From Cephalotus follicularis (Eukaryota > Streptophyta > Magnoliopsida > Oxalidales > Cephalotaceae), in contig BDDD01000714.1 in NCBI GenBank assembly GCA_001972305.1, positions 76,874 to 140,873 on the forward strand: 64,000 bases of DNA, given 5' to 3'. Positions 16,240 through 59,548 of this stretch are shown piece by piece; the stretch's first letter is position 1; each line of letters starts with the position of its first letter. Both the position numbers and the translations under genes were made by a program. A model generated the notes under the pieces. It was not told the origin of the DNA. It did not search any database and saw only the letters and a program-made list of their open reading frames with translations.

Positions 16240-16253
16240 GAAGGAGGGGTGGA
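16240..16253 (+). promoter_or_regulatory. Polypurine tract
   Basis: GAAGGAGGGGTGGA lies immediately before the 3' LTR, preceded by GGGGACGAAATTCC, the common end of plant Ty3/gypsy interiors. It would prime plus-strand synthesis. Confidence 0.88.
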
Positions 16254-34263: not shown

Positions 34264-34369
34264 TCAATCCTCATCATCACCTCCAACATCTTCGATATCG
34301 GTGTCGTGACCTTCTTCTTGATTTTCTTCTTCATTTTGTGTGTTATCTTCGCCTTGTTGACTAGATGAA
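34264..34369 (-). pseudogene. Copia additional ORF, C-terminal piece (piece 3)
   Basis: Read from 34369 towards 34264 (one base, then 34 codons and TGA) it encodes a very acidic tail (SSSQQGEDNTQNEEENQEEG, then ending GGDDED). The piece ends at the LTR boundary 34370. It fits the end of piece 2 at 46349, which stops in an equally Glu-rich stretch (EEGEEVQGQEE). It is followed downstream by the copia purine tracts and LTR, so the protein lies between pol and the 3' LTR. The join to piece 2 has no target duplication, so a few residues may be lost. Confidence 0.75.
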
Positions 34370-34511
34370 TGTAACGCCCGGGATTTTCATTAATGTAATG
34401 TTGTAATTTTCAATGCGTTTATGCATTTAATTAATGAGAATTATGACTTTTCCCCACTTTGTAATGTTAAGATTTGAGCAAAAGTTGAAGTGTGGAAAGT
34501 GCTGAAACAGG

Positions 34512-34652
34512 GCAGGCAGCCGACTGTCCAAGAGGGACAGTCGACTGGACCCCCCTTTTAATGGGACCAGCCGACTGCTGTGAGGGACAGCCAGCTGGGG
34601 ATGATGACGATAGAGACAGCCTACTGCCGAGGCAAGGTAGTCGATTGCCATG
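34512..34652. repeat. CAGTCGACTG-like repeats
   Basis: About six copies (GCAGCCGACTGTCC, ACAGTCGACTGG, CCAGCCGACTGC and similar). Confidence 0.88.
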
Positions 34653-34967
34653 GGATAGGTCAGTTAAAAACGTGTTGGCAGTCTGTTTTTGGCAGAGAGA
34701 AAGGGGGAGAGAACAAAATTGCTCAGTTGTGGGGTTGTGAGGAGAGAGGCACGAAAATGCCCATAAATACACATGTCTCTTCCCGTCATTCCATCAACAT
34801 TGCATTAAGAAAGAGAGATAGATAGTTATGAAAGAAAAGGGAGAGAAAAGAGAAGAGAGAAGTTGTATCTCTCCAATTTTGAGCTTGGAATCTGGACTTG
34901 GAGCTCGAACCAGACCTAGTGGAGTTGCTGGACGGATTCAGAAGCTTGGAAACTCGGATTGGGACTG

Positions 34968-34970
<3 letters not shown>

Positions 34971-35016
<46 letters not shown>
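34971..35016. repeat. TA/TATG microsatellite
   Basis: Three (TA)n runs separated by TG. Confidence 0.93.
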
Positions 35017-35515
35017 GTCTTGTGATCTATTATGTACTGCATCATGGATGCATTCATTACATGACTTTCTTTATCTTTGATCATAAATTTCACTTATGAT
35101 TTAGCCGAGTGAGGACAAAGGCTCACCCCCAACTATTACAGATTGATGCAGTGACTTGGATATCGACCGTGCATGGCCGAATCAGAGGAGAGACGGAGTT
35201 TTATCTGCTTAAATAAATGTTAAACCATGTATTAAAACATGTTTTGTTTCGGATTACTATACTAATGTTTTAATGATGTTAATCGACTTCGATCATGCTC
35301 CGGTTGTGGGAAGTTGACATGACTTGTTAATGTTAAATGATGGAATCATGTGGTATGGGACGCATGATTCGGTTTATTTTCAGCTTATATTTAAATTCTT
35401 CCACAAGATGTTAATGGTATTTAAAGTTTTAAATTTACCGTATTTGCATAAGCTGAATATTTATGTTAAATTGCCATGACCTTTATCTTGTCAATGAAGC
35501 GGGGTGTGACAGCAG

Positions 35516-35527
35516 TGGTATCAGAGC
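35516..35527 (+). promoter_or_regulatory. Primer binding site (initiator tRNA-Met)
   Basis: TGGTATCAGAGC, four bases after the LTR end, as in the first element. Confidence 0.93.
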
Positions 35528-35652
35528 ATATAGCCATTATATGCTTAGCTGGGATATTATCCTTGGCAATTAAATAAGTGTTCCTGTAAGGAAAGTTCAT
35601 TAATGATTTAAGATTCTTCATGATTATTAATGTCATTTTATTATAGCAACAA

Positions 35653-36872
35653 ATGGACGGTCGAAGAAGACGTGGAAGGCGTAGAGTTATTGATAAGGAT
35701 GTTCCCGAGGAGGTGAATCTTGGGGTAGATCCAATGAATGATGTTCCACAGGGGGCTGCCAATATGAATGTTCCCGAGGTGGCGCCTAATGCGAGAGATC
35801 CAATGGACCGCATCGCTGACTACATCCAGCAGCAGAGAGCTGCTAATCAGAAACAGATGGCCGCTAATGCAGCGAACATGGAGAAGATGCGGAGATTGTA
35901 TGCTCAAGCTCAGCCTCAGCATATGGCTCATCCTCAAGGCGTACATGATGACGGTAATCAGTTTGGAAGGAACCTTGAGAGATTCATGAGACAGAATCCT
36001 CCCAGTTTCAAAGGGGAGCTGGATGCCACTATTGCTGAGAGATGGTTACAGGATCTAGAGAAGATCTTCGAGGTGATAGAATGCACCGACAGGCAGAAAC
36101 TGAGATTTACTGTGTACCGACTATGGGGTGAGGCCACCCACTGGTGGGAGATGGTTAAAGCAAAATGGGAAGCAACCGGAGTTGCTAGTACTTGGGAAGG
36201 GTGTCAGGAGGAGTTCCTGGCGACTTATATACCCCCGATAGTGCGAGAAAGGAGAGAGACGGAGCTCTTGGAGCTGCGGCAGGGTGACATGACTGTGGCC
36301 AAGTATCAGGCCATATTTGTGGAGCTTGGCAGACATTCGGCTTATCTGGTGGCAGATGAGGAAAAGAAGATCCGGGGGTTTTGAGGGGTTTACGACCGAA
36401 TCTTTGGTCTTGGATTAGAGCTATGGAGCTTGGTACTTTTGTTGAGGTCGCTCAGAAGGCGAGATTGAAGGAGAGTATATCGAGTGAAGACTGGGCCGAG
36501 AGGGCCCGAGCACAACAGAATAAACAGACATCTACTCAGTCTAGGCCAGCATCATGGAAATGGCAGGGCAGCGGTTCTCCAACAAAGTCACCAAAGAATA
36601 GATCCAACCAGTCTGCCAGTCAAGGGAGTAACACGAGGCTCAGAGCTTGTTCTTCCTGCGGCCGTATGTGTCTCATTCAGAAAGACTGTTGGTTGAAGAA
36701 AGGGCTGTGTATGAGATATGGGGAGTCTGGCCACATGGCGAGGGATTGCCCGAGCGGTCAGACGATAGCACCTACTGGGCCAACGTGTGGTACCGGTTCT
36801 GCACCTGGACCGTCACAGTGGAAAGATACCGGCAAGGGTATCGTGAAAGGTAGAGTTTCCAGTCTCACTTAG
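35653..36872 (+). pseudogene. gag: gag of second family A element, one frameshift and one stop
   Basis: Starts MDGRRRRGRRRVIDKDVPEE and runs 243 codons. A missing base at about 36378 moves coding to the frame of 36381-36872, which ends at TAG 36870-36872 in place of the Gln seen in the first copy. Both zinc knuckles are damaged: CSSCGRMCLIQKDC lacks the His and CMRYGESGHMARDC has Tyr for the second Cys. The capsid part is the best-preserved gag in the window, because the first copy is frameshifted earlier. Confidence 0.88.
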
Positions 36873-38954
36873 ATAGAGGTTCCAGAGTCTACTTCTGTTG
36901 TGGGAGGTACTATATATGTTTACAGCTTTTCTGCTAGAGTGTTGATGGACTCGGGAGAATCGCATTCTTTTATTGCATCCCGTTTTGTATCATGTTTCAA
37001 TGTGTTTCTTGACTGCATGCCTTATGTTCTTGATGTGAGTACACCTACCGGAGGTTCCATGTGTACAGATTCAGTGTATAGAGGTTGCGAGATTTCCATG
37101 GCAAGTGTTCCAGTATATGCAGATTTGATTGTATTGCCCATACATGATTTTGACGTCATCTTGGGTATGGACTGGTTGTCAGCTTACCGTGCATGCATGG
37201 ACTGTTACAACAAGACTGTGGATTTTTGCTTACCAGATGGAACCACTATACAGTTCAAAGGAAACAAAGGGTTCTCGATGCCAATTATATCTTTTATTCG
37301 GGCATCGAGGTACCTAGAAAAAGGGTGTGAAGGGTTTCTGGCTCACGTGGTTGATAGAAGAAAGGAGAAAGGTAAGAGCCTAGAAGAAGTTCCGGTTGTG
37401 AATGGATTTCTAGATGTGTTTCCTACAGACTTGGTGTCTTTACAACTGAGGAGGAGCATGGAGTTTGTGATTGACCTAGTACCAGGTACAACTCCTATCT
37501 CTAAGGCGCCTTACCGAATGGCTCCTGCGGAGTTGAGAGAGTTGAAGTTACAACTGCAAGACCTGATTGATAAGGGTTTTGTACAGCCCAGTGTTTCTCC
37601 GTGGGGTGCGCCAATGTTGTTTGTGAAAAAGAAGGATGGGTCGATGAGGCTTTGCATCGACTACAGGATGTTGAATAAGGCTACTATCAAGAATAAGTAT
37701 CCTCTTCCACATATTGAGGATTTGTTTGACCAGTTACAAGGGTCAAGGGTGTTCTCCAAACTCGATCTGAAGTCAGGTTATCACCAGCTGAGAGTGAAGG
37801 AAGGAGATATAGAGAAGACTACCTTCCGGACTAGGTATGGTCATTATGAGTTCTTGGTAATGCCGTTTTGTGTCACTAACGCACCGGCAGCGTTTATGTC
37901 ACTGATGAACGATGTGTTTCGACCGTACCTGGATCAGTTTGTAGTAGTGTTTATTGATGACATACCGGTGTACTCAATGAGTGAGGAGGAGCACGCCTAT
38001 CATCTGAGATTAATTTTGCAGATTCTCAAAGAGCATCGGTTGTATGCGAAGTTTGGCAAGTGTGAGTTTCGGCTCGATCATGGGATTTTTGTTGGTCATA
38101 TTGTATCCGGAGAGGGTTTGGCGGTGGATCCGTCGAAGACTGAGGTGGTGCGAGACTGGCCACAACCAAGGAATGTGACTGAGGTGCTTGGCTTGGCAGG
38201 ATATTATCGGAGGTTCATTCATAACTTTTCGTGGATTGCCAAAACTTTGACAAGACTGACCCAGAAGAAGACCTTGTTTGTCTGGGATGATGAATGTGAA
38301 GCCAATTTTTGTGATCTGAAGGATCGGTTGGTTTCCGCTCCTGTTTTTGCGTTACCTGAGGGCAACGAGGGCTTTGCAGTCTATAGTGATGCTTCGGGTA
38401 AGGGTTTCGGTTGCGTTTTGATGCAACGAGGCATAGTGATCACTTATGCTTCACGGAAGCTAAAGCTGTATGAGGAGAACTACCCGACGCATGATCTTGA
38501 ATTGGTCGCGATTATCTTTGCTGTTCAGAAATGGAGACATTACTTATATGGGGCACGGTTTGAGATTTTCAATGACCACAAGAGTTTGAGGTATCTTTTC
38601 TTTCAAGATACACTGAACATGAGACAACGGTGATGGGTTGAGTTCTTTAATGACTATGACTGCAGTATTCAGTACCATCCCAGGAAAGCGAATGTGGTCG
38701 CGGATGCCTTAAGTCATAAGGCTATGATTGCTAATACGATGATATCTCAGTGCAAGATGCTAGAGGATTTCCAACAATGGTCTCCGTTTAATCAGTCACC
38801 GGGGGTCTTTGTGGCTAGCATGCAGGCACAGCCGGCGCTATTGGACCATATAAAGGATGCACAGTTGCGTGATCCTGAGTTACTGAAGATTCATGAGAAT
38901 CTGGAGTCCGAGTCTGATTTTCAGATGCATCCTAACGGCATTCTAAGATTTTGA
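36873..38954 (+). pseudogene. pol: pol: protease, RT, RNase H of second family A element
   Basis: The protease box reads DSGESHSF (about 36950), with Glu where the first copy has the conserved Ala. RT has [16 protein letters not shown] and FIDD (37950-37961), and VMPFC replaces the usual VMPFG. RNase H has VYSDASG (about 38381), but YTDHKS has become FNDHKS. TGA at 38631-38633 and 38952-38954 interrupt the frame, both at probable Arg codons. All coding from 36381 to 39890 stays in one frame, so after the gag shift only substitutions damaged it. Confidence 0.9.
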
Positions 38955-39999
38955 GGTCGAGTATGTGTTCCTGATGAGGCTTGGATAAGAAGTGAGTTGT
39001 TATATGCATCACATAAATCACAGTATAGCATACATCCTAGCAGCACAAAAATGTATCAAGATATGAGAAGGAACTTTCGGTGGTCCGGTGTGAAGAAAGA
39101 GATTGCTGATTATGTTCCAAAGTGTTATACTTGTCAGACTGTCAAGGCTGAGCACCAGAGGCCAGCGGGGTTGTTACAGCCCTTACCAATTCCAGAGTGG
39201 AAATGGGAGCATATGATGATGGATTTTGTTTTAGGTTTTCCCTTGGCTCGGAACCGCCACAATGCGGTTTGGGTCATTGTGGATCGGCTTACCAAATCGG
39301 CTCACTTTTTGCCTACTCATGTTACTGATTCTGTGAGCAAGTTGGATCGGTTGTATATGAAGGAGATAGTGAGACTACACGGTGTTGCCGTGAGCATAGT
39401 CTGTGACAGAGACTCGATTTTCACTTCCAACTTCTGGAAGAGGTTTCAGACAGCTTTTGGGATGAACCTGAACCTTAGCACTGCCTCCTACCCACAGACT
39501 GATGGCCAGACAGAGCGTACCATCTAGACCTTGAAGGATATGCTCCGAGCTTGCATTATTGACTTTACTGGTACTTGGGAGGACCACATTCCTATGATAG
39601 AGTTTTCTTATAACAACAGTTATCACTCTAGTATCGGTATGGCTCCGTATGAGGCTTTGTATGGGAGAAAGTGTAGATCACCCATTTGTTGGGATGAGGT
39701 TGGTGAGCGACCTTTGCTTGGATCAGATCTGGTGGAGGAGACTTCTGAGGAAGTCAAATTCATCAGGGAGAAACTGCTTGCTGCTCAGAGCCGGCAGAAG
39801 AGCTATTTGGATAGCGTCAAAAGGAGGCCTCTGACCTTCGACGTTGGTGATCATGTGTTTTTGAAAGTTTCACCGTGGAAGGGTGTATAGAGATTTGGGA
39901 AGAAGGGCAAGTTAGCTCCGCGCTACATCGGTCCTTTTGAGATTTTGGAGAGAGTTGGGGAGGTAGCTTATCAGCTTGCCTTACCTCCTGCACTGTCAA
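38955..39999 (+). pseudogene. int: pol: integrase, truncated before the chromodomain
   Basis: Contains the zinc-binding part (YVPKCYTCQT, about 39110), MDFVLGFP, CDRDSIFTS and a Glu in TLKDMLRA replaced by Lys, so the catalytic triad is probably broken. Stops are TAG 39525-39527 and TAG 39888-39890, both Gln positions in the first copy. Similarity ends at QLALPPALS. Confidence 0.88.
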
Positions 40000-40013
40000 A
40001 TGCAATCATATTA

Positions 40014-42960
40014 TGCATTAATGAAGATTATGGATTTCCAGTTTGTAATGTTGGATCTTGAGTAAAGAGTGTTAAGGAATGTTTTGATGTGTTAAAAAAA
40101 TAAGGAAAAGAGACGCTTTAAGCATCGACTCCAACAGATAGCGTCGATGCCAAGAAGGAAAGCAACACGCTTTAGGGTTCTTGCCCTAACACTTCGACGC
40201 CAAGAGATTAGCGTTAACGCTGTTTGTGGAACCTGTAAGCGCTACGGAGGATAGTCAACGCGTAGACACGCATCTCAATACATTAACGCCTAAACATGAT
40301 GACAGATGAAACTAAGGAACCGACAGAAGCTACGCTAAGGACAGGTGCACCCATTGATCAAGCTCCTTGTCATGCAAGAGGTATCGTGTTAGACATGACA
40401 CCAGTTCCCTATTCCTGTAACTGCAGAAAGTGGGAAAGAAGGGGGCAGAGTGCGTATGCGGGCAGGTGAGAAGAGAGAGAAAGAGACGCAACTTCTCCAT
40501 AAAGCACGCCTCTCATCTTCCTTTTCAACCGATACCTAATAAAAGAATGAAAGAAAAAAAGTGAGAAAACAAAAAATGGAGAAGACAATGTTTTGGTTTC
40601 ACTGGACCGTCGACGCTTAGAGGAATAGCGTCGATGCTTTGGCTTGTTATGCGAGGAAGAAGATGCTTAAAGCATCGATGCTAAGAGGTAAGACATTGAA
40701 GCCTAAGGTTCCTACCTCAAAGCGTCGACGCCAAGTAGATAAACATTGATGCCTAGAAGGTCTGTCATAAACGTGGTCCGCCATAAACGTTGACGCCTAG
40801 AGGGTATGTTGTAACGCCCAGGATTTTCATATGTTGTAATTTCATGATGTAAATATACTTTTATTATGGAATTAATAAAATGATGGATTTCCCGACTTTG
40901 ATGATGTTTTCTCTTTTGAACAATGTTGATTTTGGGATAAGAAATACCAAGAAATGTTAAGATTTTGCCTTACTTTAAAAATTGAAGAAAAGGGCAAAAG
41001 TATTGACGCCTTAAACCTATAGCGTCGATGCCTTTCCATCTAACGCATGCGTATTTCCAACTCGTCAAAATGACGACACACAGTATACGTGCGATGCCTT
41101 CGCGTAAATGTGTAAAGACGTCGACGTGAAGAAAAAGACGTCGACGCCTTGTGTCATGTTTCTGATGCGCACTAACAACAGATGGACGTGTCGCATGGAC
41201 GGTTTTTCATGCCACTCATCCGGCACCTTGGCAGACCCTTTTGTGACATGGTATGCATGCCTGTAATGTCTGGCTTACAAACAAAAAGCTCCGGAGGATA
41301 GTCAACGCCAAGATGCATTAATGAAGATTATGGATTTCTAGTTTGTAATGTTGGATCTTGAGTAAATAGTTTTAAGGAATGTTGTGATGAGTTAAAAAAA
41401 ATAAGGAAAAGAGACGCTTTAAGCATCGACTCCAACAGATAGTGTCGACGCCAAGAAGTAAAGCAATACGCTTTAGGGTTCTTACCCTAATACGTTGACG
41501 CCAAGAGATAAGCGTTAACGCGGTTCATGGAACCTGTACGCACTACAGAGGATAGTCAACGCGTAGACATGCATCTCCTTACGTTGACGCCTAAACATGA
41601 TGACAGATGAAACTAAGGCACCGATAGAAGCTACGCTAAGCACAGGTGTCACCCACTGATCAAGCTCCTTGTCATGCTAGAGGTATCGTGTTAGACATGA
41701 CACCAGTTCCCTATTCTTGTAACTGCAGAAAGTGGGAAAATAGGGAATAGAGTGCGTATGCGGGTAGGTGACAAGAGAGAGAAAAAGACGCAACTTCTCC
41801 ATAAAGCACGCCTCTCATCTTCCTTTTCAACTGATACCTAATAAAAGAATGAAAGAAAAAAAGTGAGAAAACAAAAAAGAAAGGAGAAGGAGAGAGAGCA
41901 TATCCTCCATACTTGAACTCGGAGCTAAGGGTTGGAGGCTTGGAAACGGAGGTTGGAGTTGAACCTGGATTGGAGTTTCTGTGCTGGACCTGGGAGCTAA
42001 AGCGCTACTGGTCTGTGATCTTGAAGAGGTGGACTACGGTTCCTAACATGGAATCTAAGGTAGGGATTATATAACAGTGTTTTGAGCTTAATTATAGTGG
42101 ATGCATGAATGGTGGATTGTGATTTGAGCATGTGGTTTGCCATTAATGGATAAACTGTTATGCATGTTTGATTGGAAATGAAATGGATTGGGTTGTATGT
42201 GTTGATCTGTTGGTTCCACTGGTATTGGACATGGTTGTGTTTTACAAATAGAGAAGACAATGTTTTGGTTTCACTGGACCGTCGACGCTTAGAGGAATAG
42301 CGTCCATGCTTTGGCTTGTTATGCGAGGAAGAAGACGCTTAAAGCATCGACCCTGAGAGGTAAGACATTGACGCATAAGGTTCCTACCTCAAAGCGTCAA
42401 CACCAAGCAGATAAACATTGACGCCTAGAAGGTCTGGCATAAACGTGGTCCGCCATAAACGTTGACGCCAAGAGGGTATGTTGTAACTCCCAGAATTTTC
42501 ATATGTTGTAATTTCACGATGTAAATGTACTTTTATTGTGGTTTTAATAAAATGATGGATTTCCCGACTTTTATGACGTTTTCTCTTTTGAACAATGTTG
42601 ATTTTGGGATAAGAAATACCAAGACATGTTAAGCTTTTGCCTTACTTTAAAAATTGAAGAAAAGGGCAAAAGCATTGACGCCTTAAACCTATAGCGTCGA
42701 TGCCTTTCCAACTAACGCATGCGTATTTCAAACTCGTCAAAACGACGACACATAGTATACGTGCGATGCCTTCGCGTAAATGTGTAAAGACGTCGACATG
42801 AAGAAAAAGACATCGACGCCTTGTGTCGTGTTTCTGATGCACACTAACAACATATGGACGTGTCGCATGGAGGGTTTTTCATGCCACTCATCCGGCACCT
42901 TGGTAGACCCTTTTGTGACGTGGTATGCATGCCTGTAATGTCTAGCTTACAAACAACAAA
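40014..42960 (+). repeat. Tandem duplication across an LTR junction
   Basis: 40014-41287 is repeated as 41314-42960. Both copies hold the end of the outer LTR, the TATGT target copy and the first about 480 bases of the inner LTR. The second copy has about 370 extra bases (about 41877-42248). The copies differ at many positions, so the duplication is old. Because TATGT precedes both LTR starts (40810 and 42482), the duplication came after the inner insertion. Confidence 0.88.
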
Positions 42961-45181
42961 AAGAGACTGAAGAGAAAAAGAATCTCTGAGTGTATGAACT
43001 GTGAGGAGGAAGAATGCAACACATGTTGCATCAGGTTTGCAATAGAGAGAGAGAGAGTTGAGCTGGTGGACGCATGCAGATGAAACAAAAACGAGAATTA
43101 CATAAGTTTTAGTTCTCTCACTTTCCTCTAGTCTGTTACTGAAAGAGAAAGACAGAGAGTGAGAGAGAGCAGAAGGGTAGAGAGAGAAAGCTCAACTTCC
43201 ATTATTGAGCAAGGGAGAGCATAGAGCTTGGACAGAAATTGTTGGAATGAACCAGGGAGCATTCAAGCCGTACATGGGAGCTCAAAAGGGACTATTGAAT
43301 ACTAAAAGAGGTGGACTTTCAGCTTCTAACTTGAGGCCAGAGGTATGGGAAGCCATAATTGTAATTTTGAGCTTAATATTCATGCCTGGACAGTGATTTT
43401 TGTGCATAGTTTTCATGGTTAATTGAACTATTTTAGGTCACTGGATTTATGTCATGTTGTACTGGATGTGTAATATGATGTTGCATGTCGGTTTTCTGGG
43501 CTTAATGCATCTTGGTTTACATGTTGTTGAGTTGGAGAGGTTTCTGTTTGTCATGTCGTGAGGAAGAAGACGACTGATGCTCAAAAAACGTCGACGCCTT
43601 TGGGAAACATCGACGCCTTTGGGTTGTCTGCTTGGATACTGACGTATTATACGTCGATGCCTAAGGTTCCTACCTTAACGCATTGACGCCTTAAGCAATA
43701 CACTGGCGTTTAAGGTTCCATATCTTGAACGCTGACGCGTATGAGTTAGACATCAACGTCTTCGGAACAGTGGAAAGCGCTGGCGTTAAGGAGTTGAGCG
43801 TCGATGCTTACGGGACAAAAACATCACGCCTAAGGATAGACATCGACGCCTTCTTGTACTGTTTGGAAGTTTTCATACTTAAATGATACGAAACGATCCC
43901 GATTCCAATTAAGGTGCATTAGAGCATTTGTATGCATTGCATATGTACTATTTACTGCCTTTTTATTAACTGTTTAAGATTTCTAAATTGTTATATTAGT
44001 TAGAAATGCATATATGAGTTTGAAAATCACTGTGTTTGAGTACAAAAATATATAATGGATAATGACATATTTTCGAACATACCGGGAAAGAAATTTCACT
44101 AGTAAACTGTTTAAAGTATTTCCTACTTACTGAAAATGCACATTTCAAGTGTTTATGACTTTTAAAAAATGTCTTGAATTGAACTGCCTTTTTACTGATC
44201 CAGCTATCATTTTGTAAAATGACTGGAACTACTACTGCATTGTTTACTGTGACTGCTTTGTGCTTGGTTTGTGGTTGTGTTTGCACCGTACTAGTTGCGT
44301 GGCGGGGACTGCCAGCGTTGACTAGTAGCAAGGTTGACCTAGGGGCCAGGAGTTTGCTGGGTAACTCACTGTACTGTACTGTTGACTTGCTTGGTTTTCT
44401 GGAGACGAGACCGAAGCTAGAGTGCAACGTGGGGCCAAGAGTTGGCGGCGTTGTACATACTGATTGCCTATTTGTTGGTCCCTTTGTGGACACACTGTTT
44501 ACTGTATAGTGGTCCTATGCAGACGCTACTGTGCCTGTTTGATTTAGCCCTGGTTGGGTTACTACTGTACTGTTGATGCATATATATATATATATATATA
44601 TATCCACTGTTATTTTACTATACTGCTGACTTATATATATTTTCATATATATATATATATAAACCGATATTTTTTACTGTACTGCATCACTATGCATACA
44701 TCTCATGACATGCATCTAATGTTAATCCCGACTTACTCTTATGACATAGACGAGTGAGGACAACGGCTAACCCCCTACTTTACAGATTGATGCAGTGGAC
44801 CGGTTTTGGACCAGCATGGACGAAGAACAAGCTTTAATAAAGTTTTTACTTGGGTTATGTCCTTTTGGGATTTTGTTAAGCTGGTTATGTATTGGAAGGG
44901 TGTTGTGTACCATACTTCCGGTTTACTTGTTTTATAATGTTGCTGGATAATGTATTTTGGATCACGCTCCGTTTTGTGGGCTTTTAACTATGACAGACAT
45001 GTGTTTGGTAACGTGTAGTATGGGATGCACGTTACCTGCTTTTCAGCTTATGGGTTTTTAATGCTTCCGCAACTGATATCATGTTTGAAAAGTTTAATTT
45101 TTTATGGTATTTGCATAAGCTGAATCTTAAATGTTAATTGCCTTTACCATATCTACTGTTTCCTGAAAACGGGGTGTGACA
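42482..45181 (+). mobile_element. Family B solo LTR, exact TATGT duplication
   Basis: 2700 bases from TGTAACTCCCAGAATTTT to AAACGGGGTGTGACA, flanked by TATGT (42477-42481 and 45182-45186). It has GCGTCGACGCC repeats near 42280-42480, 42660-42830 and 43570-43860, a paired GGGGCCAGGAGT module (44341 and 44433) and TA microsatellites at 44578-44602 and 44630-44660. There is no coding interior. Confidence 0.87.
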
Positions 45182-48099: not shown

Positions 48100-48960
48100 T
48101 ATGTCATGCGCCGATCTCGCGACCGCATACACTCGAGCTCTCCAAGCATGCCCCCGAGTGTGCAACATCACACACCTGAGCTCCCTAAGCATGCATCTCG
48201 AGCATGTGTCTTGTGTGTGCATGTCATGCCCGAGCATATCATAGCACCGAGCTTTCCACTGCATGCATCCTAAGCATGCAAAGGCATCGAGCTCTCCACT
48301 TTGAGCGACCTAAGCATGAAATGGTGTCGAGCTTTCCACTGCATGCATCCTGAGCATGCAAGGCACCCAACCACTGTCCAAGATGCTGAGATGGTGCCTA
48401 AGCAAGCCATGCCTGGGTCTGAGCATGCATTCGTCCGAGCATGCCAAGATGTCAAGATGGCGTCTAAGCAAGCCATCCCTGCATCCCAGCATGCATACGT
48501 CCGAGCATGCCGAGATGGCACCTATGCAAGCCATGCCTGCGTCCGAGCATGCATATGTCCGAGCATGCCGAGATGGCGTCAAAGTATACCATGCATGTGT
48601 CCGAGTATGCATGCGTCCAAGCTGTGCACCTTAACATGATGTAGCACGCCTTCTGAGCATGCCATGCAACAAATCCAAGCTCTCCACTGTATGCGTCCAA
48701 TGCGTGCCTTCTGAGCATGCCATGCAACGCATCCGAGCTCCCCATCCCAAGTATGCATGGTACATGCCAAACTCTCCATCCTAAGCATGCCTGGTGAATG
48801 TCGAGGTCTCCATCCCGAGCATGCATGGTGAGTGCTGAGTTCTCCATCCCGAGCATGCAATGGTAAGTACCGAGCTTTCCACTGTACAGCATGCGTGTCA
48901 ACCATGCAAGCAAGGCGATGTCCACTGCGCAGCATGCGTCTCGGACATGCAATGCCTGGG
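48100..48960. repeat. GAGCATGC / CCGAGCTC repeat array
   Basis: More than thirty copies of GAGCATGC, AAGCATGC or close variants, often next to CCGAGCT or CGTCCGAG, at 20-45 base spacing. This is an expanded form of the array at 7916-8112. Both strands stay open, giving overlapping Met/His/Cys-rich ORFs that are not genes. Confidence 0.9.
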
Positions 48961-49149
48961 TTCATTACACCATACGCATCCAACATGCCCAACCTTAGAT
49001 GCCGAGAAGGATTAAATGTGGCTAAGTGAATAAACGTGTTAACTACAGAGGGATAAATGAGTGTAGTGTAGTGTAATGAAGGCAAACTAAGTGTAACATT
49101 GTCAGACCTCTTAAGGACCCGGGCTCCCTACTCTAGTCCAATTAATGGT

Positions 49150-49360
49150 AGTGTAGTGTAATGTAATGTAATGTAATGTAATGCACTCGGTCACAAAAGA
49201 TGAACCCTATGGGGGTCACCACTGAGATGAACCAGTAAGGCTATCCTTGAGATGAACCAATGGGTCACCAACTGAGATGAACCAGGAGGGTCACCAAGAT
49301 AGCCCAGTGGATCACCGATTGAGATGAGCCTGATAGATCACCAATCGAGATGAGCCATAA
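49150..49360. repeat. (TGTAA)n run and GGGTCACC..GAGATGAACC tandem repeats
   Basis: About five ATGTA/TGTAA units (to about 49184), then five to six units of about 30 bases matching 8262-8448. Confidence 0.88.
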
Positions 49361-52300
49361 ATGTTAAGTGAATGTTAATGTTTAGTGTAATGTATAATGT
49401 TATATCTGATAAGGTCTAACTAGAGGAAAGTGAAAGAGTGTATGTTCCTCTCCTCTGCCTATTACCTCTAGAGCGCGTATATTGCTCTTCCCCAAGCTGA
49501 GGAGTCCAAGGAACCATGTCTGCCTAAAAATGTAATGTTATTCCATCCCGGCTGCTCTGCCTTTAACGTTTGGAGTGCGTCTACCGCTCCTCCCTAAGTA
49601 GGGGATGCCGAGGAAGAATGAAAATGATTTTTAATGTACTGTAAATGACTGTTATTGATACTGTTAATGTCATGAATGCTTGTACTGTATGGATTGCTTA
49701 TATATTGCATCTCTCATTGCATGCCTGCTACATTGCACTCCACATATTCATGGGTAGTAGTTCCTACACAACCAGTGGTTGCTGACCCATTGCATTGTCA
49801 TGTAATGGGTCAGGTGCAGCTGGAGCTTCGCAGCAAACAGAGGATTGAAGCATTGTGTAAGTCTCCTCCTTCCAGTGGCTGTTCGATGACCCAAGGATAT
49901 TATAATGAGATTGTATTTCTTTTCTGACTTGCCGGGTTGTGGCAGAGCTAGACCTTAAACAGCATTGTATACATTGGATTTTATCCACATAAGTGATGTT
50001 TTATTGGATTTTCGCATGCATTATTATATTGTTAAATGTTTTAATCATTCTGCTAAATTGTTATATACATGATATGGTACTGTTGTAGCGCACCAGGCCT
50101 TGGGAGTTCACCCTTGGGGTTTGGGGCGTTACACGATATGTGAAGCTATATGCTTAAGGCTTCTGTCCTTATAACGTTGACGCCATGAAATAGCGTCAAC
50201 GCCAGGATGTGAGGTGCGAAACTAAGGGTCCTTGCCCGAACGCGTCGCCACCAAGAGATGAGTGTTAACGCGCTTTGTGGAACCTGTTAGCACTAAGAAG
50301 GATGGTCAATGCGTCAACACCTAAGAGTTGACGTCGACGCCTACAACTGTCGGCATAATGAGTTAAAGCACTGACAAAAGATGTGTGAAGGACAAGTGTG
50401 AGACACTTTACCATTTCCCCATGCCTAAACTGACAGAGGGGGACAGAGATGGGACTGATGGGTGTCATGTCGGGAGGTGAGAGAAGAGAGAAAGAGAGGC
50501 GAGGTTCCCATAAAGCACACTCCTTCCTCCTCAAACCTTCAATGCCTACAAAAGAAATAAAGAGAAAGGAAAATAGAGAGAAATAGAAGGAAAACAGTGA
50601 GAAAAGAGAGAAACGGGAGAAAAGAGAAGCCATACCTCTCCATTGTTGAACCTGGAAGCTTTGGAGTTCAAACCAGTTGGAGTCGAGCTTGGATTTGGGG
50701 TCCCTGTGCCAAACTTGGAGCTCAAGAGGAGTGCCATGGGATTGTGATCTTGAAGAGGTGGACTTCGATTCCTAACTTGGAATCCGAGGTAGGGATCATA
50801 TAACTGTAATTTTGAGTTCGGTTATAATAAGAGTCGTTTGGTGAAATGCATGAATGGTGGGTTTGTGGATTGAGTGAATGCTGTGGTTTGTCTTTGAATG
50901 ATAAACTGTTATGGATATCCTGTTTGGAAGCATATGGACTAAGTATTGCACGTATTGTTTTTATCAGACCCATTGTTTTGTGACATGGTTGTGCGTTGCA
51001 ATGGAAGAGACGCTGTTATGGTCTCACATTCGTTGAGGCCTAGAGTGCGCGTCGACGCCTTGGTCTATTATATGAGAGAAACACGCTTAAAGCGTTGACG
51101 CCAAAGTTTCATTACCTTAAAGCGTCGACGCCAAGAGGTAAAGCGCTCATGCCCAAGGATCCTTGCCTTGAAGTGTAACGACTTGCATTGATTTTTGGAT
51201 AAATTAATGTTTGGACCCTGGGGAAAATTTTTCTTTTTCTCCTTGCTTGGGTTCGGTTTTGGACTTGTGGCATAAGGCCCTTTGGACATGTGTTGAGTGA
51301 AGAGTTGGACAAGTGTTGAATGAAGAATGAAGAGATGGAAGATATTTTGTGTGGTGCCTTGGGAGGGTTGTAAAGCTTCTTAAGGAAGTTTTGGTAGTTG
51401 ACTCTGGCTAATGTGAAGGGACAGTGATCATTTCTATCAGTTCACATTGGAATGAGCAGTTGCTAAAGATTTCTTTCCTTTCTTCTTCTTCTCCCTGAAG
51501 CTTCGTTCGTCATCTGAGGTTGGAACTACCCTACCAGTCTACACGTTTAGCAGGTGAGTGTTCTCCTCAGGTTGGTTATGGTGTGAAGCTTCGACAGAAG
51601 AGTAATGGTTTGTGAGACCGAGGAAGAGCTTGGCTCTAGTTCTTGTACATGTGTGTGGTTCATGCATGCTCCTCGGACGTTTGTTGGTTAGTTATAGCTA
51701 AGCTGTGTGATTTTTAATGAGTTATTTGTTATATTTTTATGCTTGGAATAGACTACTGTGGTTGTGTTTATTTGATTTTCAGGTATTATGTCTATTATTG
51801 AGGAATAAGAGAAAATGAAGCTAAAATGCTATTTTTTGAGTCAAAGTGGTTTGAAGTAAAAAATCGGTTCAAAAGTACACCCACTTAAGCGAGAGAAGTC
51901 AAAATTTAAAGCTCAGAAGATATTGAATATTGGGCTCATTTTATTCATAAAATTATCTGGAGCACTTTTCGTTCTTGGGCTAACTCATTTTGAAGATCCG
52001 AAGAAGAGATGTTGCAAGAAAACAAACATTGAAGCATTTGTTGTCAAGCTGCCACGTGTCACCATCAGATTTGCTCTTCCAATTTCAATTTTGCCAAAGC
52101 CTTCATCACACGCCAACATCCACTTACATTCATCAATCCATGCACCATCAATTCTTCAGCCATGCCTTGATGTCCATGCATTCAGCAGTCTTCAATCAGC
52201 CCATGCATGCAATACATAGACTCAAGTCAGCAGCCCACATGTGCAACATGCATCAAGTTTAATTCCATCTGCCAAAAGCCCATGTCATGCAACCAACGTC

Positions 52301-52574
52301 CACGCGTCTTTGATTTATATTTTAGGGCATAAATCGGCTGGTTGTATGCATATATATATACTGCTTAGCAAAGTAGAAAAAAAGGAGAAGGCAATAGAGA
52401 ACACTAGCAGTCGCCGATTTTCTTCTTCGTTTTTTTCTTTCAATTTTTAGTTTAGTTTTTCTTAATGTTTTGTAGCTAGTTTCTTAAGGTTTTTGGGTTA
52501 GAACAAAGCCTATATTGTTATTGTTTCAATTCCATCAATAAAAATCCTTGAATATTTTATTTGTTCTTCAATTT

Positions 52575-52642
52575 TTCTGCCTTCGTACACACTTTGTTTA
52601 TCTGATTAAAATCCACACTCATCTTGTCGGTGAAGCTGAAAG
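52575..52642 (+). repeat. Direct repeat upstream of gag (partner 55283-55350)
   Basis: CTTCG(T/C)ACACACTTTGTTT(A/G)TCTGATTAAAATCCACACTC, continuing through GAAGCTGAAAGTT, occurs at both places about 2.7 kb apart with few differences. Confidence 0.88.
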
Positions 52643-52678
52643 TTACAAAACCAATTCCAAAATCAACAATCACCTGGA

Positions 52679-53382
52679 TTGTTGAACCAAAGGGAAGATA
52701 CATCTAGGATTTCATCATTAGAGAAGAACATTGAGCTTTTTAGGAGCACTATGATGACTAGTCAGCACAACCTAGAAAAGCAAATCTCTCAGCTAGCATC
52801 TGCGGTGCATACAAGAGAAAAAGGGAATATGTCTTCTCAACCCGAACTGAATCCTAGGACGAATATGATTCAGCCCGATCGTATCCAACCACAACCTAAT
52901 CCACAATGCTCATCTTCCTCCGGACCATCCGATCAAGCATTTTCCTTGCGAAGTGGAAGTGAGTACCAACCAGCGGAAAAAACGGAAAATTCGAGCGAGG
53001 AGTTGGTTGAGACATTTGAGAATGAAGAAGCAAAAAATAGTTGGTAGACTCCTTTGCGCAACCAACAAATTTAAATGTGCAAGAAGAAGTTATGGAAGAG
53101 AAAGAAAAAGAGGAAAAGGAACAATTATTGGAAATACCTAAACGTTCATTTGATCCCCCAGTTCCTTTTCCAAAGAGATTAGAGAAAAATAAGAAAGCCT
53201 CCGCAATGGAAAAGATCATCAATACATTTAAACAAGTTCAAATCAATATCCCATTGCTTGAAGCTATTGAGCAGGTTCCCTCTTACGCAAAAGTCCTTAA
53301 AGACTTATGCACGAAAAAGAGGATCCTTCAGACTCCGAAAAAGGATTTCTTGGCAGCCAACATTAGTGCACTGTTTTCGTAA
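52679..53382 (+). pseudogene. gag: gag C-terminal part, frameshifted
   Basis: 52679-53047 (LNQREDTSRISSLEKNIELF; then LEKQISQLASAV) resembles the end of gag in Athila/Tat-type elements. The frame shifts near an A-run at about 53030, and 53041-53382 continues in another frame (PVPFPKRLEKNKK, then FKQVQINIPLLEAIEQVPSY), the typical segment just before protease. It ends in TAA at 53380. The first part of gag is missing. Confidence 0.8.
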
Positions 53383-53388
53383 CCCACG

Positions 53389-54456
53389 ATGCGAAAGTAT
53401 AAAGATCCTGGTTGCCCGACAATCTCTTGTGTTATTGGTAACACCAAAATCGATCATGCCTTGCTCGATTTAGGAGCAAGTGTGAATTTGTTGCCTTCGT
53501 CAGATTTTGAGCAACTAGGTTTAGGAGAGTTGCACTCGACCAATACGACTTTGCAATTAGCTGACAGGTCGGTAAAAGTACCAAAAGGGAAAATTGAGGA
53601 TGTTTTGATAAAGGTTGGTGAGTTTTTCTTTTCTGTCGACTTTGTCGTATTAGATACCCAGCCTGTTGTGAATATAAAAGACCAAATCCCAGTTATCCTT
53701 AGTAGACCATTCTTGGCCACAAGTAATGCATTGATCAATTGCCGAAATGGTCTCATGAAGTTGAGTTTTGGAGAGTCGTCTATGGACTTTAACATTTTTC
53801 GTTTGGGAAAGCATCAATCTGACTTTGATGATGTCTATGTGATTCGCTCGATTCCTGATACCATAGATTCGTATTTTAATATCGACTTTGATTGCAATTT
53901 CAAGAGGGAATTCGAGATAGAGGAAATTAAACAAAAGGATAGATTGATGTGGCTAGAAAACGAGGAAGCATTGGCATGGTTAAAAAGTAAGCTCAATGAG
54001 CCAACATCGGATAGTGAATGGGATCATCTATCCCATTACACACACAAACTCGTTACGTCTGACCAAACATACTTTGACGAAGACTTTGAGAACAACTTCA
54101 TGGAATGCTTGAGAGAGTTCGAGGAATTGGAGGCCACACAAAAGGAGATATTAAGTTGGTTGGACGATGGGGATGTTGATTCAATTTTGGAAGTTCAATG
54201 GGATGATCTGTCCCATTTCACACACAAACTTAGCACGCCATCCCACCCTCACACCATCCTCGAAAATAACTGTTTCTTTACTCAAGATCAATTAGGATGG
54301 AGGGTGTGCACTCGTTGGACCATGTGTGTAATTGGTTGGTTGGCCGTGATTATTCGTGTTTTCTTCATTATTTCTATTGGTGGAGATCTTGTTGGGATTG
54401 TTCTTATATTGTTAAAATTGTTTTCCCATGTGGTATGTTTAAAATTGCTAAGATAA
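53389..54456 (+). CDS. Retropepsin-like protease of Athila/Tat-type element with divergent tail
   Basis: Aspartic protease, which would cut the Gag polyprotein. Seen directly: IGNTKIDHALLDLGASVNLL with active site D-L-G-A (about 53466), where most retropepsins have D-T/S-G. This variant is common in plant Athila/Tat-type elements. Then QLGLGELHSTNTTLQLADRS and PVILSRPFLATSNALINCR. After the protease, about 200 residues are acidic with two repeated units (EWDHLSHYTHKL and QWDDLSHFTHKL). The frame is the same as 53041-53382, with only TAA between, so the true start is upstream. The RT expected next is absent. Confidence 0.82.
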   Translation: MRKYKDPGCPTISCVIGNTKIDHALLDLGASVNLLPSSDFEQLGLGELHSTNTTLQLADRSVKVPKGKIEDVLIKVGEFFFSVDFVVLDTQPVVNIKDQIPVILSRPFLATSNALINCRNGLMKLSFGESSMDFNIFRLGKHQSDFDDVYVIRSIPDTIDSYFNIDFDCNFKREFEIEEIKQKDRLMWLENEEALAWLKSKLNEPTSDSEWDHLSHYTHKLVTSDQTYFDEDFENNFMECLREFEELEATQKEILSWLDDGDVDSILEVQWDDLSHFTHKLSTPSHPHTILENNCFFTQDQLGWRVCTRWTMCVIGWLAVIIRVFFIISIGGDLVGIVLILLKLFSHVVCLKLLR

Positions 54457-57400
54457 GCTTAGGTGATGCATTCAAATGTTTTTGTTCTCTAGATGGTTTC
54501 TATTGGTGGACATCCTTTTGGGATGTCGCTTATATTAGTAAACCTATGCCTTCACGTGGTGTTTTTGAGTTTGTTAAGACAGGTATTGGAGACGCGCGAG
54601 CACTAACATTTTTGGATTTTCAAGCTGCATTGATAGAAGAGGCCATGGACTTTCATGAGCCTCGTTATTTTGAGCCTCCATGATCATATCCGGTAAACCC
54701 TACCCCTTTGTTCTTTATTTTATTGCATTGTTTCTTATATTTTTACTGTTCATGCATATTTCTTTTCTTTAGTTTGTTTTTAGTGCATTGAGGACAATGC
54801 AAGATTTAAGTATGGGGGGTTTAGATCGAAGTTCATTTTAATTTTGAAAGTAGGAATAAGTGTTGATATACTTAGAGATAACAGAAAAACCCCATAGGAG
54901 ATAATAAAATTTTTGTTTTCAAGGAAAAGAAAAGGAATGCATCTCGAGGTAAGAATTTTGTGCGAAAATTAAAATGTTAAATGAATAAAAGACCGATCTT
55001 TATATGTTTTCAAAGTTTCATAAGATTTTATGGAGGAGGAGGATATGGAATTGAGGTTCTTGTATATATGTGTATATATATATGTTCTAAAAAAAAGAAA
55101 AGAAAAAAATATAAAAAAATATAAAAAAAAATCGGTCTTAGTCTGAAGCCTATTTGGTTCGAGTAATTAAACCTGAGGGGTGTTTTACACCTAGTTCCTT
55201 AAAGCCAACTGGTTTGAGATAACTGGTCGAAAGCTCGCTACATGGACCTTATAGAAAGCTTAAAAGGCTAAGACCTATATAAAAATCTTCGCACACACTT
55301 TGTTTGTCTGATTAAAATCCACACTCATCTTGTCGGTGAAGCTGAAAGTTGTCGAATAAATGGAGCTTAATTCAACGGAGTCTACTCATACGATTTGTCG
55401 CTATGAACACACTTCGTATAGACCTAGCATAACTACTCATACGTCTTGTCAGCAATGTCGCACTCCGTATAGACCTAGCTGTCGTTGTTTACCAATGTAT
55501 GATCGTTCAATTAAATGGAATTGTTCAATACAATCTATGGTGAGTTTCTATACCCTAAAACTAATTTTCTATTATATATATTTTTTAGTTTTATTTATTG
55601 CTTTAATTAGTTTTAATTTGCACGTGTTATTTTCTGTTATTTTATTTTAGTCTGTTATTTTATTTTATTTATTTCCTGTCTATTTTCAATTGTTTTATTA
55701 TTTTTGCATAATTAGGAGTAGTTTTTGATAGTTTATCTCAAATTTGGTATACTTCTCCTAGGTTGGATAAATTACAACTAGTTTACGTTTCCCTGCGTTC
55801 GACCCGTTACTGCATGATCCGTGCACTTGCGGCTATAAATTTTAAAACATCACATTCTTTTTACGTGAACACGTATATGAGGGATGTGTACAGTCCTGTA
55901 GCCCATGACCTCGCTGATGGATTTCAGCGGAGCTGTTACTTGTGTTTGCCGAGGTGGTTCCGGCTAGGGAAATGTGTGAGTATGATGTGTGCATGAATGT
56001 GTGGGGTATGTGCATGTGATTTATACAGTACCAGTAGTCCTCTTGTTGATTGTGATCCTAGGAGTCTTGATCATTTTGTTGATCCTTGGATCCTCGGCAT
56101 ATTTATTATAACTTGTTGTTATTATCTTTCCTTGAGGTCAGTCATTGAGTTTGGTAGCTCTGACGTCTCCTCAGACTCTCATTTGTTGTTGATATTTATG
56201 TGCATTTTCACCTCTGCCTTATTCTTGTTGAATAGTGGATATGTGGTGTCCTCGGCCCAGTTGGGGCTTAGCACGTTTGCCTTGTTCTTAGCTCCCAGTG
56301 GTGGTGGGTTGCCCTTGAAGTTCCCTAATCTTACTCACTAGTCAGTTGGACTAATCCCCTCTTAGTTTTATGTGCAGAGGAAGCAGGGTTGTAGAGTTCT
56401 TGAGATCCACTAAGAGAAAGCGTGTTGACAGAGGTAGACATCCGACGCAAGCACCTTAGGATGGATCCTCGGCGTTGCTCGACCCTCATGCATTTTGGGG
56501 CATTCTTGGGGGTTTTTGTATAGATTTTATGATCTTAAGATCTGTAGCCTCTTTTATCATCTATGTATATGAATCTTAGAGAATGAGAGTCCTCGGTATT
56601 TTTGAGGTATTTTTCCAGAGGATCATATATGGTTTACCTGATGTTTTTATATGCTTATATATGTCATGTGATCTTCCTCTGACGGATGTGGATGTTTTTC
56701 TCTAAGTGTGTAGATGTCGAGATGACCAGGGTGTGTGCTTGGGAGTCCTCTGACCTTGCTAGCGGAGTAGGCCTCCTCAGCCCATGCCTTAAATGAGAAC
56801 ATAGGAGATCCTTCTTGGATCTTTAGAGAGCTACTGACACCTTGCCGAGATGCCGAGGAGGGGATGATGAGGTTCATAGACTAGGCAGACCTTAGGTTGA
56901 CCCCTTTCAACTCGGGTTAGTTTGACCTTAGAGTTGAAGTCTGGTGGCGTCCTAGGGTGTTTTGCCCGACCTCCAACCCCTGACCAGCAAAGTTCCTTGA
57001 GATGTTTTGATGTATGAACCCAGGTGGATCTTTTGAGTGCACGGACATCGTGAGATTTTATCTCCTTAGTGTAAGTTGAACGTTTGGAGGACCTAGGGTT
57101 GTTTTCCTCTGCAAGGAGTTTGTCCCCGGGCCTTAGAGTTGATCCCAGGATTAAGGCTTATCTATACGATGTCATTTCCTGTGCTCGGGCATTGCTTTGT
57201 TTTAATGCATTATGGTGTGTGGTTATTTGGAGAGCTTGGTTCTCCTCCGTAGCGTGTTTCCACATCTGCTCCTTTATCCTTGAGTGTTAGGCTTAAATTT
57301 TGGTGTTTTGGTGACCAAGGTTAGGGATCTAGGTGGAGGATCCTTCCTCCTGGCACGGCCGTCCTTCTACGGGGGTGGTCGGGAACGGGGCGTGTCATGA

Positions 57401-58134
57401 AGTGCCGACGCCAAAGAGGCGAGACGTTGACGCCTAAGTGTTTGCCATAGACATTGTGCGCTACTAACGTTAACACCTGGAAGATGTATTGACGCCTAGA
57501 GCGAGTGTTGGCGCCTGTGAGGATTTCCATGCATGTTGACGCATAGGGTAGACGTTGACGCCTAAGAGAGCTGCTATAAACGTTGACGCGTATAGGGTAT
57601 ACATTGACGCCAAAAGAGACTGATTACGTTTTGGAGCACAAGGTGCCGTATACGTTGACGCCTTGAGTTAGGTGTTGACGTCAAAAGGGTTTGTTTGCAT
57701 TTTGAGCATATGCTTTCATATTGCTATTATTTGGTCAAGCTTTCCTTGCCATGTGCCGGTTAGCGTTGATACATGTATGGATTGAATTGAGTAAATGATT
57801 TCTAAAATGTTTTGTCATTTTGTAAAAGTATATGCATGATTTTATTATAAAACATTATTTGATATGAAATATTACGTTTCAACGAATTTGAAACGAGGTT
57901 TCAGGGATTGATACATATTTTGAATAAATATGTTTTGGCAAGTATTTTATGATGCATAAATTACTTGATGATGATTTTGGAAAGAATTTATTATACAAAT
58001 AGCCAAAAGTGTTTATGATTTCAAGCATTTATGAATAAATTAATTACTTGAAGCATAATTGATTGATTTGATTGGATGAGCTTTCCGAGCACCACCGGGA
58101 CGGTTAGCTTACGATCTTTCCCAGCTCGGGAAGA

Positions 58135-58330
58135 GCCGGTTAGCATGATTGGATTGTTGAGCTTTCCTCGCCTTGGACAGTCAGCCTACGTGCCTTCCCC
58201 GCCTTGGACGGTTAGCATTATTTGATTGTGGGATGTTGTTCCTCGCCTTGGACGGTCAGCCTGCGAGCTTTCCTCGCCTTGGATGGTTAGCATCTTTTGA
58301 GTAGTCGAGCTTTCCTAACCTTGTACCGGT
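58135..58330. repeat. CGCCTTGGACGGTCAGCC repeats
   Basis: About five units of TTCC(T/C)CGCCTTGGACGGTTAGC-like sequence. In the sister family B LTRs the corresponding position holds the GCCAGGAGATGGCG module, so this copy carries a different module. Confidence 0.8.
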
Positions 58331-58940
58331 TAGCCTCGATACATATGGATTGTCTGGTCCTTTGCGACATGACTGATTGGTTGTGTGGTTTAGCCACTTG
58401 GCATGATTGTCGCCTATTGATAGATACATACATATATATATATATATATATTGTGCATTGCATCATGAATGCATTCATTTCATGACATCTGTTATCGTTG
58501 TCCCAAAAGTACCTTTATATTTTCTCCACTTAACCAGGTGATTCGGCTAACCCTATCAATTGCATATTGATGCAGTGGATTGACATCGCTGAGCGTAGGG
58601 AACGAAGTGAAGAGTTTAAGTTGTATTTTCTTTAAGGAAATGTTAATTTGGATATTGTGTAACGGATTATGTATTATCAGAAATTGTTAAAAATGGATTA
58701 ATGTACTTGACTGAATTAGTTCATGCTCCGTTTTGAGGGCAATTAACAATGATAATGTTATATTGTTGCAACATGTAGTATGGGATGCATGTTACGCGTT
58801 TAAATTCAGCTTATGATTTATATGCTTCCGCAATGAAATGATATGATTAGAAAGTTTTAAATTTTTTGTATTTTCATATAAGCTGAATATATGTTGATTG
58901 CCATGACCTCCGAGTCGGATGTTGAGAACGGGGTATGACA

Positions 58941-59078
58941 ATACTTTATACCTTCTTGAGCAACTTCTTGGTGAGCTCTTACTCGCTCAGCCCTAGCAGC
59001 CCTTGCCCTATTTGCCCTTGTACCCATTCCCCTTGAGCTTTCTCCTTCCACAACATTTGGGTGCTTTGTTCTTGCCAT
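58941..59078 (-). pseudogene. Copia additional ORF, N-terminal piece (piece 1)
   Basis: 46 codons from ATG at 59078 (MARTKHPNVVEGESSRGMG, then an Arg/Ala-rich stretch RANRARAARAERVRAHQ, ending AQEGIKY) to the ATACT target copy at 58941-58945. Reading continues in frame into piece 2 at 47149. The ATG is chosen because the sequence upstream (59079-59548) is non-coding and the N-terminus is basic, as in other proteins of this type. The full product would be about 350 residues: basic N-terminus, conserved core, acidic tail. No signal peptide or membrane segment is visible, so it does not look like an envelope protein. Confidence 0.8.
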
Positions 59079-59548
59079 TTTGTTGAGAATCTTGAGTGGA
59101 GAGGATGTTTTGATGTAATGAATGATATGCGATGATGTTTATGAGATGTTTTGTAGTGATTTTCGGTTTGATTTTAGCTCAAAATCGCCAGAGAAAACGT
59201 TTAGAAATTTTAGTGTTTGTAAAATGAGGTAATTGACTGCAATTAACACTGATAAGCGCGACCTAAGCGACGACGCTTTTACCTAAGCGGCCTCACTTTG
59301 TGTAAAAGAAACCCTAAATTCGAAGCGTTAACCGCTGATGCTTATTGATTAAGCGTCGGCGTTTAATCCAGTTTTCTGCGTATATATGATTGATAAAAGA
59401 TTTTCAAAATCCATCCTAAGTTTGAATGCAAGATCATTTTTTCAAAGTTTACCAAATATGATGTATATGATTATAAATGATGCATGAATAATGACATTAT
59501 CATTTAAAAATCAAAATATCAAACAAAAACACATAATCACATAATCAT
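59079..59548 (-). other. Copia spacer between pol and the additional ORF
   Basis: No ORF. 59250-59365 has AAGCGACGACGCTT, AAGCGTTAACCGCTGATGCTT and AAGCGTCGGCGTTTAA, degenerate members of the GCGTCGACGC palindrome family found in the family B gypsy LTRs. The rest is AT-rich. Confidence 0.7.

What the first reader, a model, noticed from the sequence alone, without database searches (positions are those of the whole stretch)
34264..59078. Copia retrotransposon extra ORF recoverable across 24 kb of nested insertions
Three minus-strand pieces (59078-58941, 47149-46349, 34369-34264) together read as one protein of about 350 residues. The first join is exact: with one copy of the ATACT duplication removed, the frame runs on without gap. 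The ORF lies between copia RNase H (ends 59549) and the copia purine tract and LTR (33829), in the same strand as pol, so it is an additional ORF of the element. It has a basic Arg/Ala N-terminus, a core like PF20167 and an acidic tail, and no membrane segment. It is therefore not an obvious envelope. A Sirevirus-like element carrying a protein of this plant-specific family would be a cargo or accessory gene of unknown role.
Basis: partly seen in the sequence, partly recalled or inferred. Interest (0 to 1): 0.87.

Follow-up and report, generated by a model that had tools for sequence, protein, structure and literature searches.

The report
Retrotransposon extra gene, possibly VANC-like
A broken copia-type jumping gene in this plant genome carries an extra gene of the kind long called "envelope-like"; related copies show that it was kept by selection, and its predicted fold and DNA surroundings suggest a DNA-binding protein that may help the element escape silencing.

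Summary
The pieces belong to one open reading frame (ORF) of a Sirevirus (Ty1/copia), between RNase H and the 3' LTR, split by two nested insertions; a related copy is colinear, without the inserts. Of 29 other copies found by RNase H alone, 22 have the ORF, 3 a diverged relative, 1 its start, 1 none seen and 2 none. Corrections: the middle piece has a stop, the second join lacks about 186 bp, intact proteins have about 410 residues. The ORF shows purifying selection (dN/dS about 0.14; other frames at least 0.94).

The parts
59552..60247 (-). End of copia pol (RT end and RNase H) in three open stretches (59552-59869, 59873-60025, 60086-60247)
   Evidence: the 106-aa RNase H stretch matches 149 other scored places in the genome at 74-87% identity; no Pfam family was reported for the three stretches themselves
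59079..59551 (-). Linker between pol and the ORF: CpG observed/expected 1.43, two palindromic boxes at 59365-59348 and 59279-59262; putative internal promoter of the ORF
   Evidence: in 30 loci the box density in the 480 bp after RNase H is 3.40/kb against 0.04/kb in pol
58941..59078 (-). ORF piece 1: start codon and 46 codons, basic N-terminus
47155..58940 (.). Insert 1 (nested mobile-element sequence) flanked by target-site duplication ATACT (47150-47154 and 58941-58945); its two ends share no LTR similarity, so it is probably composite
   Evidence: (uninterrupted in L039)
46349..47153 (-). ORF piece 2: PF20167 core (46520-47032) with an in-frame stop at 46510-46508
34370..46348 (.). Insert 2 (Ty3/gypsy sequence on the + strand, coding parts 35653-39524), no target-site duplication; about 186 bp of the ORF lost at this point
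34264..34369 (-). ORF piece 3: acidic C-terminal tail and stop codon
33832..34263 (-). Linker after the ORF with an exact Sirevirus PPT octamer (33960-33953) and the terminal PPT AGTGGGAG (33839-33832, one mismatch to AGGGGGAG)
   Evidence: motif from PMC2829016 section 6
33390..33829 (-). Start of the 3' LTR (TGTTGACATT...), truncated; alignable to L039 down to 33503, lower limit uncertain; boxes at 33675-33658 and 33572-33555

Best explanation
The pieces are a decayed copy of a gene of about 410 codons that a Sirevirus (SIRE) lineage carries between pol and the 3' LTR in this genome. Shown: position, recurrence, selection, Sirevirus cis motifs, palindromic boxes shared by the LTR and the region just before the ORF, and ORF types that go with box types. 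Inferred: the boxes (and, in type C, a TATA-like stretch) form an internal promoter of the ORF; the PF20167 core is a DNA-binding domain with the VANC21 fold; the protein may dimerise through its C-terminal coiled coil on the palindromic boxes of its own LTR and own promoter, and there counters silencing and/or activates transcription, as VANC does for VANDAL DNA transposons. In this reading the 'envelope-like' gene of this Sirevirus lineage is not an envelope but a sequence-specific regulator of the element itself.
Confidence: 0.5

Rival explanations
1. The boxes are sites of host transcription factors that drive the LTR and an internal promoter of the ORF; the ORF product does something else (particle assembly, RNA-silencing suppression, movement).
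For: Bousios et al. (PMC2829016) proposed regulatory roles of such boxes, with stress-related host factors and an internal ENV promoter. A TATATA stretch follows the C boxes before the ORF in L001 and L078 (by eye).
Against: In one host genome the boxes differ between lineages in step with the ORF type, which a common host factor does not require; the predicted fold points to DNA binding.
Confidence: 0.3
2. An envelope-like protein for passage of particles between cells, the historical reading of Sirevirus and Athila 3' ORFs.
For: Position between pol and 3' LTR; the historical label 'envelope-like' (PMC3599292, passages).
Against: No clear membrane-spanning stretch in types A, B, C (maximum 19-residue Kyte-Doolittle mean 0.83, 1.51, 1.47; B and C sequences incomplete; 2.05 in type D, inside the conserved core; usual limit about 1.6, recalled). 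Basic start and coiled coil. A sunflower Athila PF20167 ORF is predicted nuclear (PMC11728184, passages). No significant match in the viral structure library (best E 1.6).
Confidence: 0.07
3. A captured host gene or passive cargo without use to the element.
For: Two of 29 copies lack it (L010, L012).
Against: dN/dS between copies well below 1 and recurrence after RNase H in 25 of 29 copies; 13348 first-look candidates in the genome, 150 scored.
Confidence: 0.05

Closest known systems
VANC21/VANC6, anti-silencing proteins of Arabidopsis VANDAL DNA transposons (PMC5735166, passages; PDB 9lnj)
   Same: Element-encoded protein; short repeated motifs in non-coding parts of the same element; motif differs between related elements with diverged proteins; predicted fold of the core
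   Different: No sequence similarity found; LTR retrotransposon, not Mutator-like DNA transposon; palindromic CpG boxes, not YAGTATTAY; no functional test; DUF1985 not found
Sirevirus ENV-like ORF with palindromic repeated motifs (RM) in LTR and 5' of ENV (PMC2829016, passages and sections 6, 12, 20)
   Same: ORF position, boxes in LTR and just before the ORF, CpG-rich; the four Sireviruses without ENV in that paper also lack linker boxes
   Different: Box cores here are GTCGAC- or GTCAAC-like, not CGG-CCG; ORF identified as PF20167 and linked to a DNA-binding fold; that paper could not name a single factor for the boxes
SIRE eORF-3'F of REXdb (PMC6317226, passages)
   Same: Extra ORF 3' of pol in the same strand, found in 74% of SIRE elements
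   Different: There, 19 groups with little or no mutual similarity and no known function; here at least three diverged types share one Pfam domain
Sunflower Athila 14 3' aORF with Transposase_32/PF20167 (PMC11728184, passages)
   Same: Same Pfam domain, 3' position, predicted nuclear
   Different: Ty3/gypsy element; no box arrays or VANC-like fold reported in the passages seen

Membership tests
PF20167 (Transposase_32) | Score over Pfam gathering cut-off (45 bits) | tested here: met
   Window piece 70.2 bits; L043 74.9, L033 75.9, L026 70.7, L001 100.8 bits; 93 of 93 aligned homologues match
Sirevirus (SIRE) genus of Ty1/copia | Multiple PPT octamers AGGGGGAG before the 3' LTR, the terminal one 10 bp upstream of it (PMC2829016) | tested here: met
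   terminal octamer exact in L039, L040, L042, L043, with 2, 4, 4 and 3 octamers before the LTR; L041, L044 and the window have a variant terminal PPT and 1, 2 and 1 exact octamers before it
Sirevirus (SIRE) genus of Ty1/copia | 5' LTR end CA + ATTGG + 9-bp PBS TATCAGAGC; poly-C integrase signal near the LTR end | tested here: met
   L060: poly-C signal, then TTCA-ATTGC-TATCAGAGC; PBS exact, spacer differs at one base; seen in this one copy (not in L045 or L059)
Sirevirus (SIRE) genus of Ty1/copia | Palindromic repeated motif with CGG-CCG core | tested here: not met
   Boxes are palindromic but with cores such as GCGTCGACGC, CAGTCGACTG, GGCGTCAACG; the paper's Tnd-1 also lacks CGG-CCG, so not decisive
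Sirevirus (SIRE) genus of Ty1/copia | Place in RT/RNase H phylogeny | not tested
   No named reference sequences at hand
VANC family | DUF1985 / sequence homology to VANC | tested here: not met
   DUF1985 absent from the full lists (16 proteins; 8 proteins) and from the 25 of 42 families shown (93 proteins); no VANC chain to E 10
VANC family | Encoded by a VANDAL Mutator-like DNA transposon | tested here: not met
   Element is an LTR retrotransposon
VANC family | VANC DNA-binding fold | tested here: inconclusive
VANC family | Repeated short motifs in the element's own non-coding regions, different between relatives | tested here: met
   (that they are targets is not shown)
VANC family | Sequence-specific DNA binding and hypomethylation of the element | not testable with these tools
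   Needs binding and methylation assays
Retroviral-type envelope | Transmembrane segment | tested here: not met
   Hydropathy of types A-C below the usual limit (B and C sequences incomplete); type D has a 2.05 peak inside the core

The most novel reading that the evidence does not exclude
The 'envelope-like' genes of Sireviruses, and perhaps the PF20167 3' ORFs of Athila elements, encode VANC-like sequence-specific anti-silencing factors whose targets are the long-known palindromic repeat boxes in LTRs and in front of the ORF; ORF and cognate boxes form a selfish recognition module that is exchanged as a unit between elements with nearly identical pol genes.
Probability: 0.42. Interest if true: 0.93.

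Novelty: new variant of a known kind. Interest (0 to 1): 0.8.

Why it matters
The role of the envelope-like gene of plant LTR retrotransposons has been open and controversial (stated in PMC2829016 and PMC6317226), and PMC2829016 could not name a single factor for the Sirevirus repeat boxes. If one protein answers both, very abundant plant retrotransposons carry self-specific anti-silencing systems like those described in VANDAL DNA transposons; a 2026 paper leaves open whether Tork and Athila ORFs shape their own methylation (PMC12844716). It would explain fast ORF divergence, box divergence and module exchange, and is testable by binding assays with one protein and three box types.

Tried and rejected
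Athila as the carrier of the highest-scoring PF20167 copies (L001-L008), suggested by PMC11728184: L001 instead has Sirevirus PPTs and the same LTR start; the others were not resolved (about 5 kb further upstream of L003, L004 and L008 showed, by eye, no recognisable pol among the longer open stretches of one strand; not Pfam-scanned).

Relatives in other plants: the three protein searches listed Cephalotus follicularis proteins only (120 of 121, 120 of 153 and 4 of 4 hits were listed). The method needs shared 5-residue words, so absence elsewhere is not shown.

First structure model from 16 sequences: pLDDT 39, not used. Viral structure library: best E 1.6. PDB by sequence: nothing, or chance matches with E 1.7 or more.

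tRNA scan of the window: none. Literature searches: PF20167 (1 paper), Transposase_32 with copia, the Pfam/InterPro names, Sirevirus with envelope-like, VANC21 structure, VANC with retrotransposon, Sirevirus with anti-silencing or VANC (61 papers, 20 listed), VANC with DUF1985/Athila, Cephalotus with retrotransposon. In the listings and passages seen, no paper linked Sirevirus 3' ORFs to VANC or PF20167; this covers only the held open-licence library and not every paper listed was opened.

Papers: PMC11728184, PMC6317226, PMC3599292, PMC12844716, PMC8756742, PMC13317346, PMC12859917, PMC10398659, PMC5735166: passages only. PMC2829016: passages and sections 6, 12, 20. Kyte-Doolittle values with their limit and general knowledge of LTR elements are recalled.
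Full report
What the window is. The genome search places the window in a 1.58-Gb plant assembly, and the listed protein relatives are all from Cephalotus follicularis, so I take the genome to be that of the Albany pitcher plant or a very close relative (inference).

The observation. The middle piece is PF20167 (E 2.7e-19); the first piece reads 46 codons with a basic start. Copy L039 elsewhere in the genome is colinear with the pieces and has no insert at the first split; a 5-bp duplication ATACT flanks insert 1. L039 also links the third piece and the LTR at 33829 to the same element. Corrections: stop codon in the middle piece; insert 2 lacks a duplication and about 186 bp of the gene are gone there; the third piece is in frame as 34386-34267, not from 34369.

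Is the ORF part of the element? I searched the genome with the RNase H stretch only (150 scored of 28172 first-look candidates) and looked downstream of the 29 best other copies. 22 have the ORF in the same strand. 3 (L026, L028, L033) have a far diverged ORF; the two submitted to Pfam, L026 and L033, score as PF20167, and L028 matches L033's ORF. L025 shows the N-terminus at the locus end (by eye); L023 shows none; L010 and L012 have PPTs about 0.3-0.4 kb after RNase H and no ORF. These copies are the best-scoring ones, so the fractions are not genome-wide rates. The reverse search with the PF20167 piece (150 scored of 13348 candidates) gave 9 further loci; 5 have the copia RNase H within 1.5 kb upstream, 4 have not.

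Lineage. Repeated PPT octamers AGGGGGAG, the terminal one 10 bp before the LTR in four of six copies, the 9-bp PBS, the poly-C signal (one copy) and LTRs of about 1.1-1.2 kb match the Sirevirus description in PMC2829016. LTR pairs are 93.9, 97.1 and 96.4% identical in three copies. An RT tree was not made.

Selection. Among 24 copies (23 loci found by RNase H, plus the window piece), median dN/dS is 0.27 (dS below 0.3), 0.14 (0.3-0.7), 0.15 (0.7-1.2) and 0.09 (above 1.2, saturated); the two other frames give 0.94 to 1.76; RNase H gives 0.04-0.13. Only 113 of 276 pairs gave usable values in frame; the rest had too few shared codons or saturated sites. 12 of the 24 have at least one stop, so many copies are dead; the constraint dates from their common past.

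Boxes. A palindromic CpG motif (A type, about AAGCGTCGACGCTT) occurs 2-7 times in the first 600 bp of the LTR and 0-3 times in the linker before the ORF in six copies, and twice in each in the window. In 30 loci, 49 of 55 hits fall within the 480 bp after RNase H (3.40/kb), against 2 in pol (0.04/kb; both in truncated L037, where they lie at the same relative place) and 4 beyond (0.14/kb). CpG observed/expected before the ORF is 0.98-1.67 in four of five measured copies (0.46 in L041; the L040 value includes part of its ORF) and 0.21-0.57 in the ORF. A test by shared 9-mers was equivocal: upstream linker and LTR share more than shuffles in 4 of 6 copies, but so does the control region after the ORF in 4 of 6. 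Such boxes in LTR and before ENV were described for other Sireviruses, with no single factor identified (PMC2829016).

Types. The diverged ORF (B) goes with another box (CCAGTCGACTGCC) before the ORF and in the LTR, and the L001 type (C) with a third (GGCGTCAACGCC). The count over all loci has 38 A, 20 B and 8 C rows, with no hits of any type inside the ORF part examined. The rows contain overlapping fetches of the same copies: L039-L044 repeat six of the A loci L011-L038; L061, L062 and L063 repeat L026, L033 and L028; and L064 repeats L033. Loci not used to define the motifs: L065-L077, B upstream (13 of 13) and in held LTRs (11 of 11); L050-L058, A upstream in 4 of 9 and in 3 of 5 held LTRs; L078, C upstream. 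Exceptions: L005 (C ORF, B boxes upstream); L003, L004, L006, L007 and L008 (C ORF) show both A- and C-pattern hits, since these two patterns are close. Pol of three B elements is 75-95% identical to eight others, up to 94.9% over 978 nt (L026 and L031), while the DNA after RNase H shows no match longer than 22 bp: the 3' part has been exchanged as a block or replaced. Because linker, ORF and 3' LTR adjoin, this is few events; what needs explaining is that LTR and linker boxes agree within each lineage.

Interpretation. Most likely the ORF makes a nuclear, sequence-specific DNA-binding protein that acts on the element's own boxes; whether it removes silencing marks like VANC or activates transcription is open. 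The window copy itself is dead: stop, deletion and two insertions.

Noticed in passing
P0100 (annotated Cephalotus protein): Mosaic of two ORF types: its N-terminal half follows P0156-type, its C-terminal half P0012-type, switching near the conserved motif LHYRFLHRAV, a sign of recombination between ORF types.
   Followed up: partly
window 11255-16623 and 34370-46348: Two related Ty3/gypsy elements on the + strand (80% identical over 4.3 kb): one with RVP_2, RT, RNase H and SH3_Tf2-1 plus sub-threshold integrase-core and chromodomain matches, the other with gag, RVP_2, RT, RNase H, Integrase_H2C2 and a sub-threshold integrase core.
   Followed up: partly
window 40013-42960: Duplicated stretches inside insert 2: 40013-40576 with 41313-41878 (92.6%) and 40574-41287 with 42246-42960 (94.4%).
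   Followed up: no
L010 and L012: Copies without the ORF; L010 has the RNase H most similar to the window copy (87%). ORF loss or an ORF-less subfamily.
   Followed up: partly
L001, L078: C-type boxes are followed by a TATATA stretch about 150 bp before the ORF start, promoter-like anatomy (by eye).
   Followed up: partly
L005: C-type ORF preceded by ten B-type boxes, unexplained exception or local rearrangement.
   Followed up: no
P0142: Annotated protein with PF20167 followed by part of a gypsy-type RNase H domain (PF17917), probably a nested-insertion fusion.
   Followed up: no
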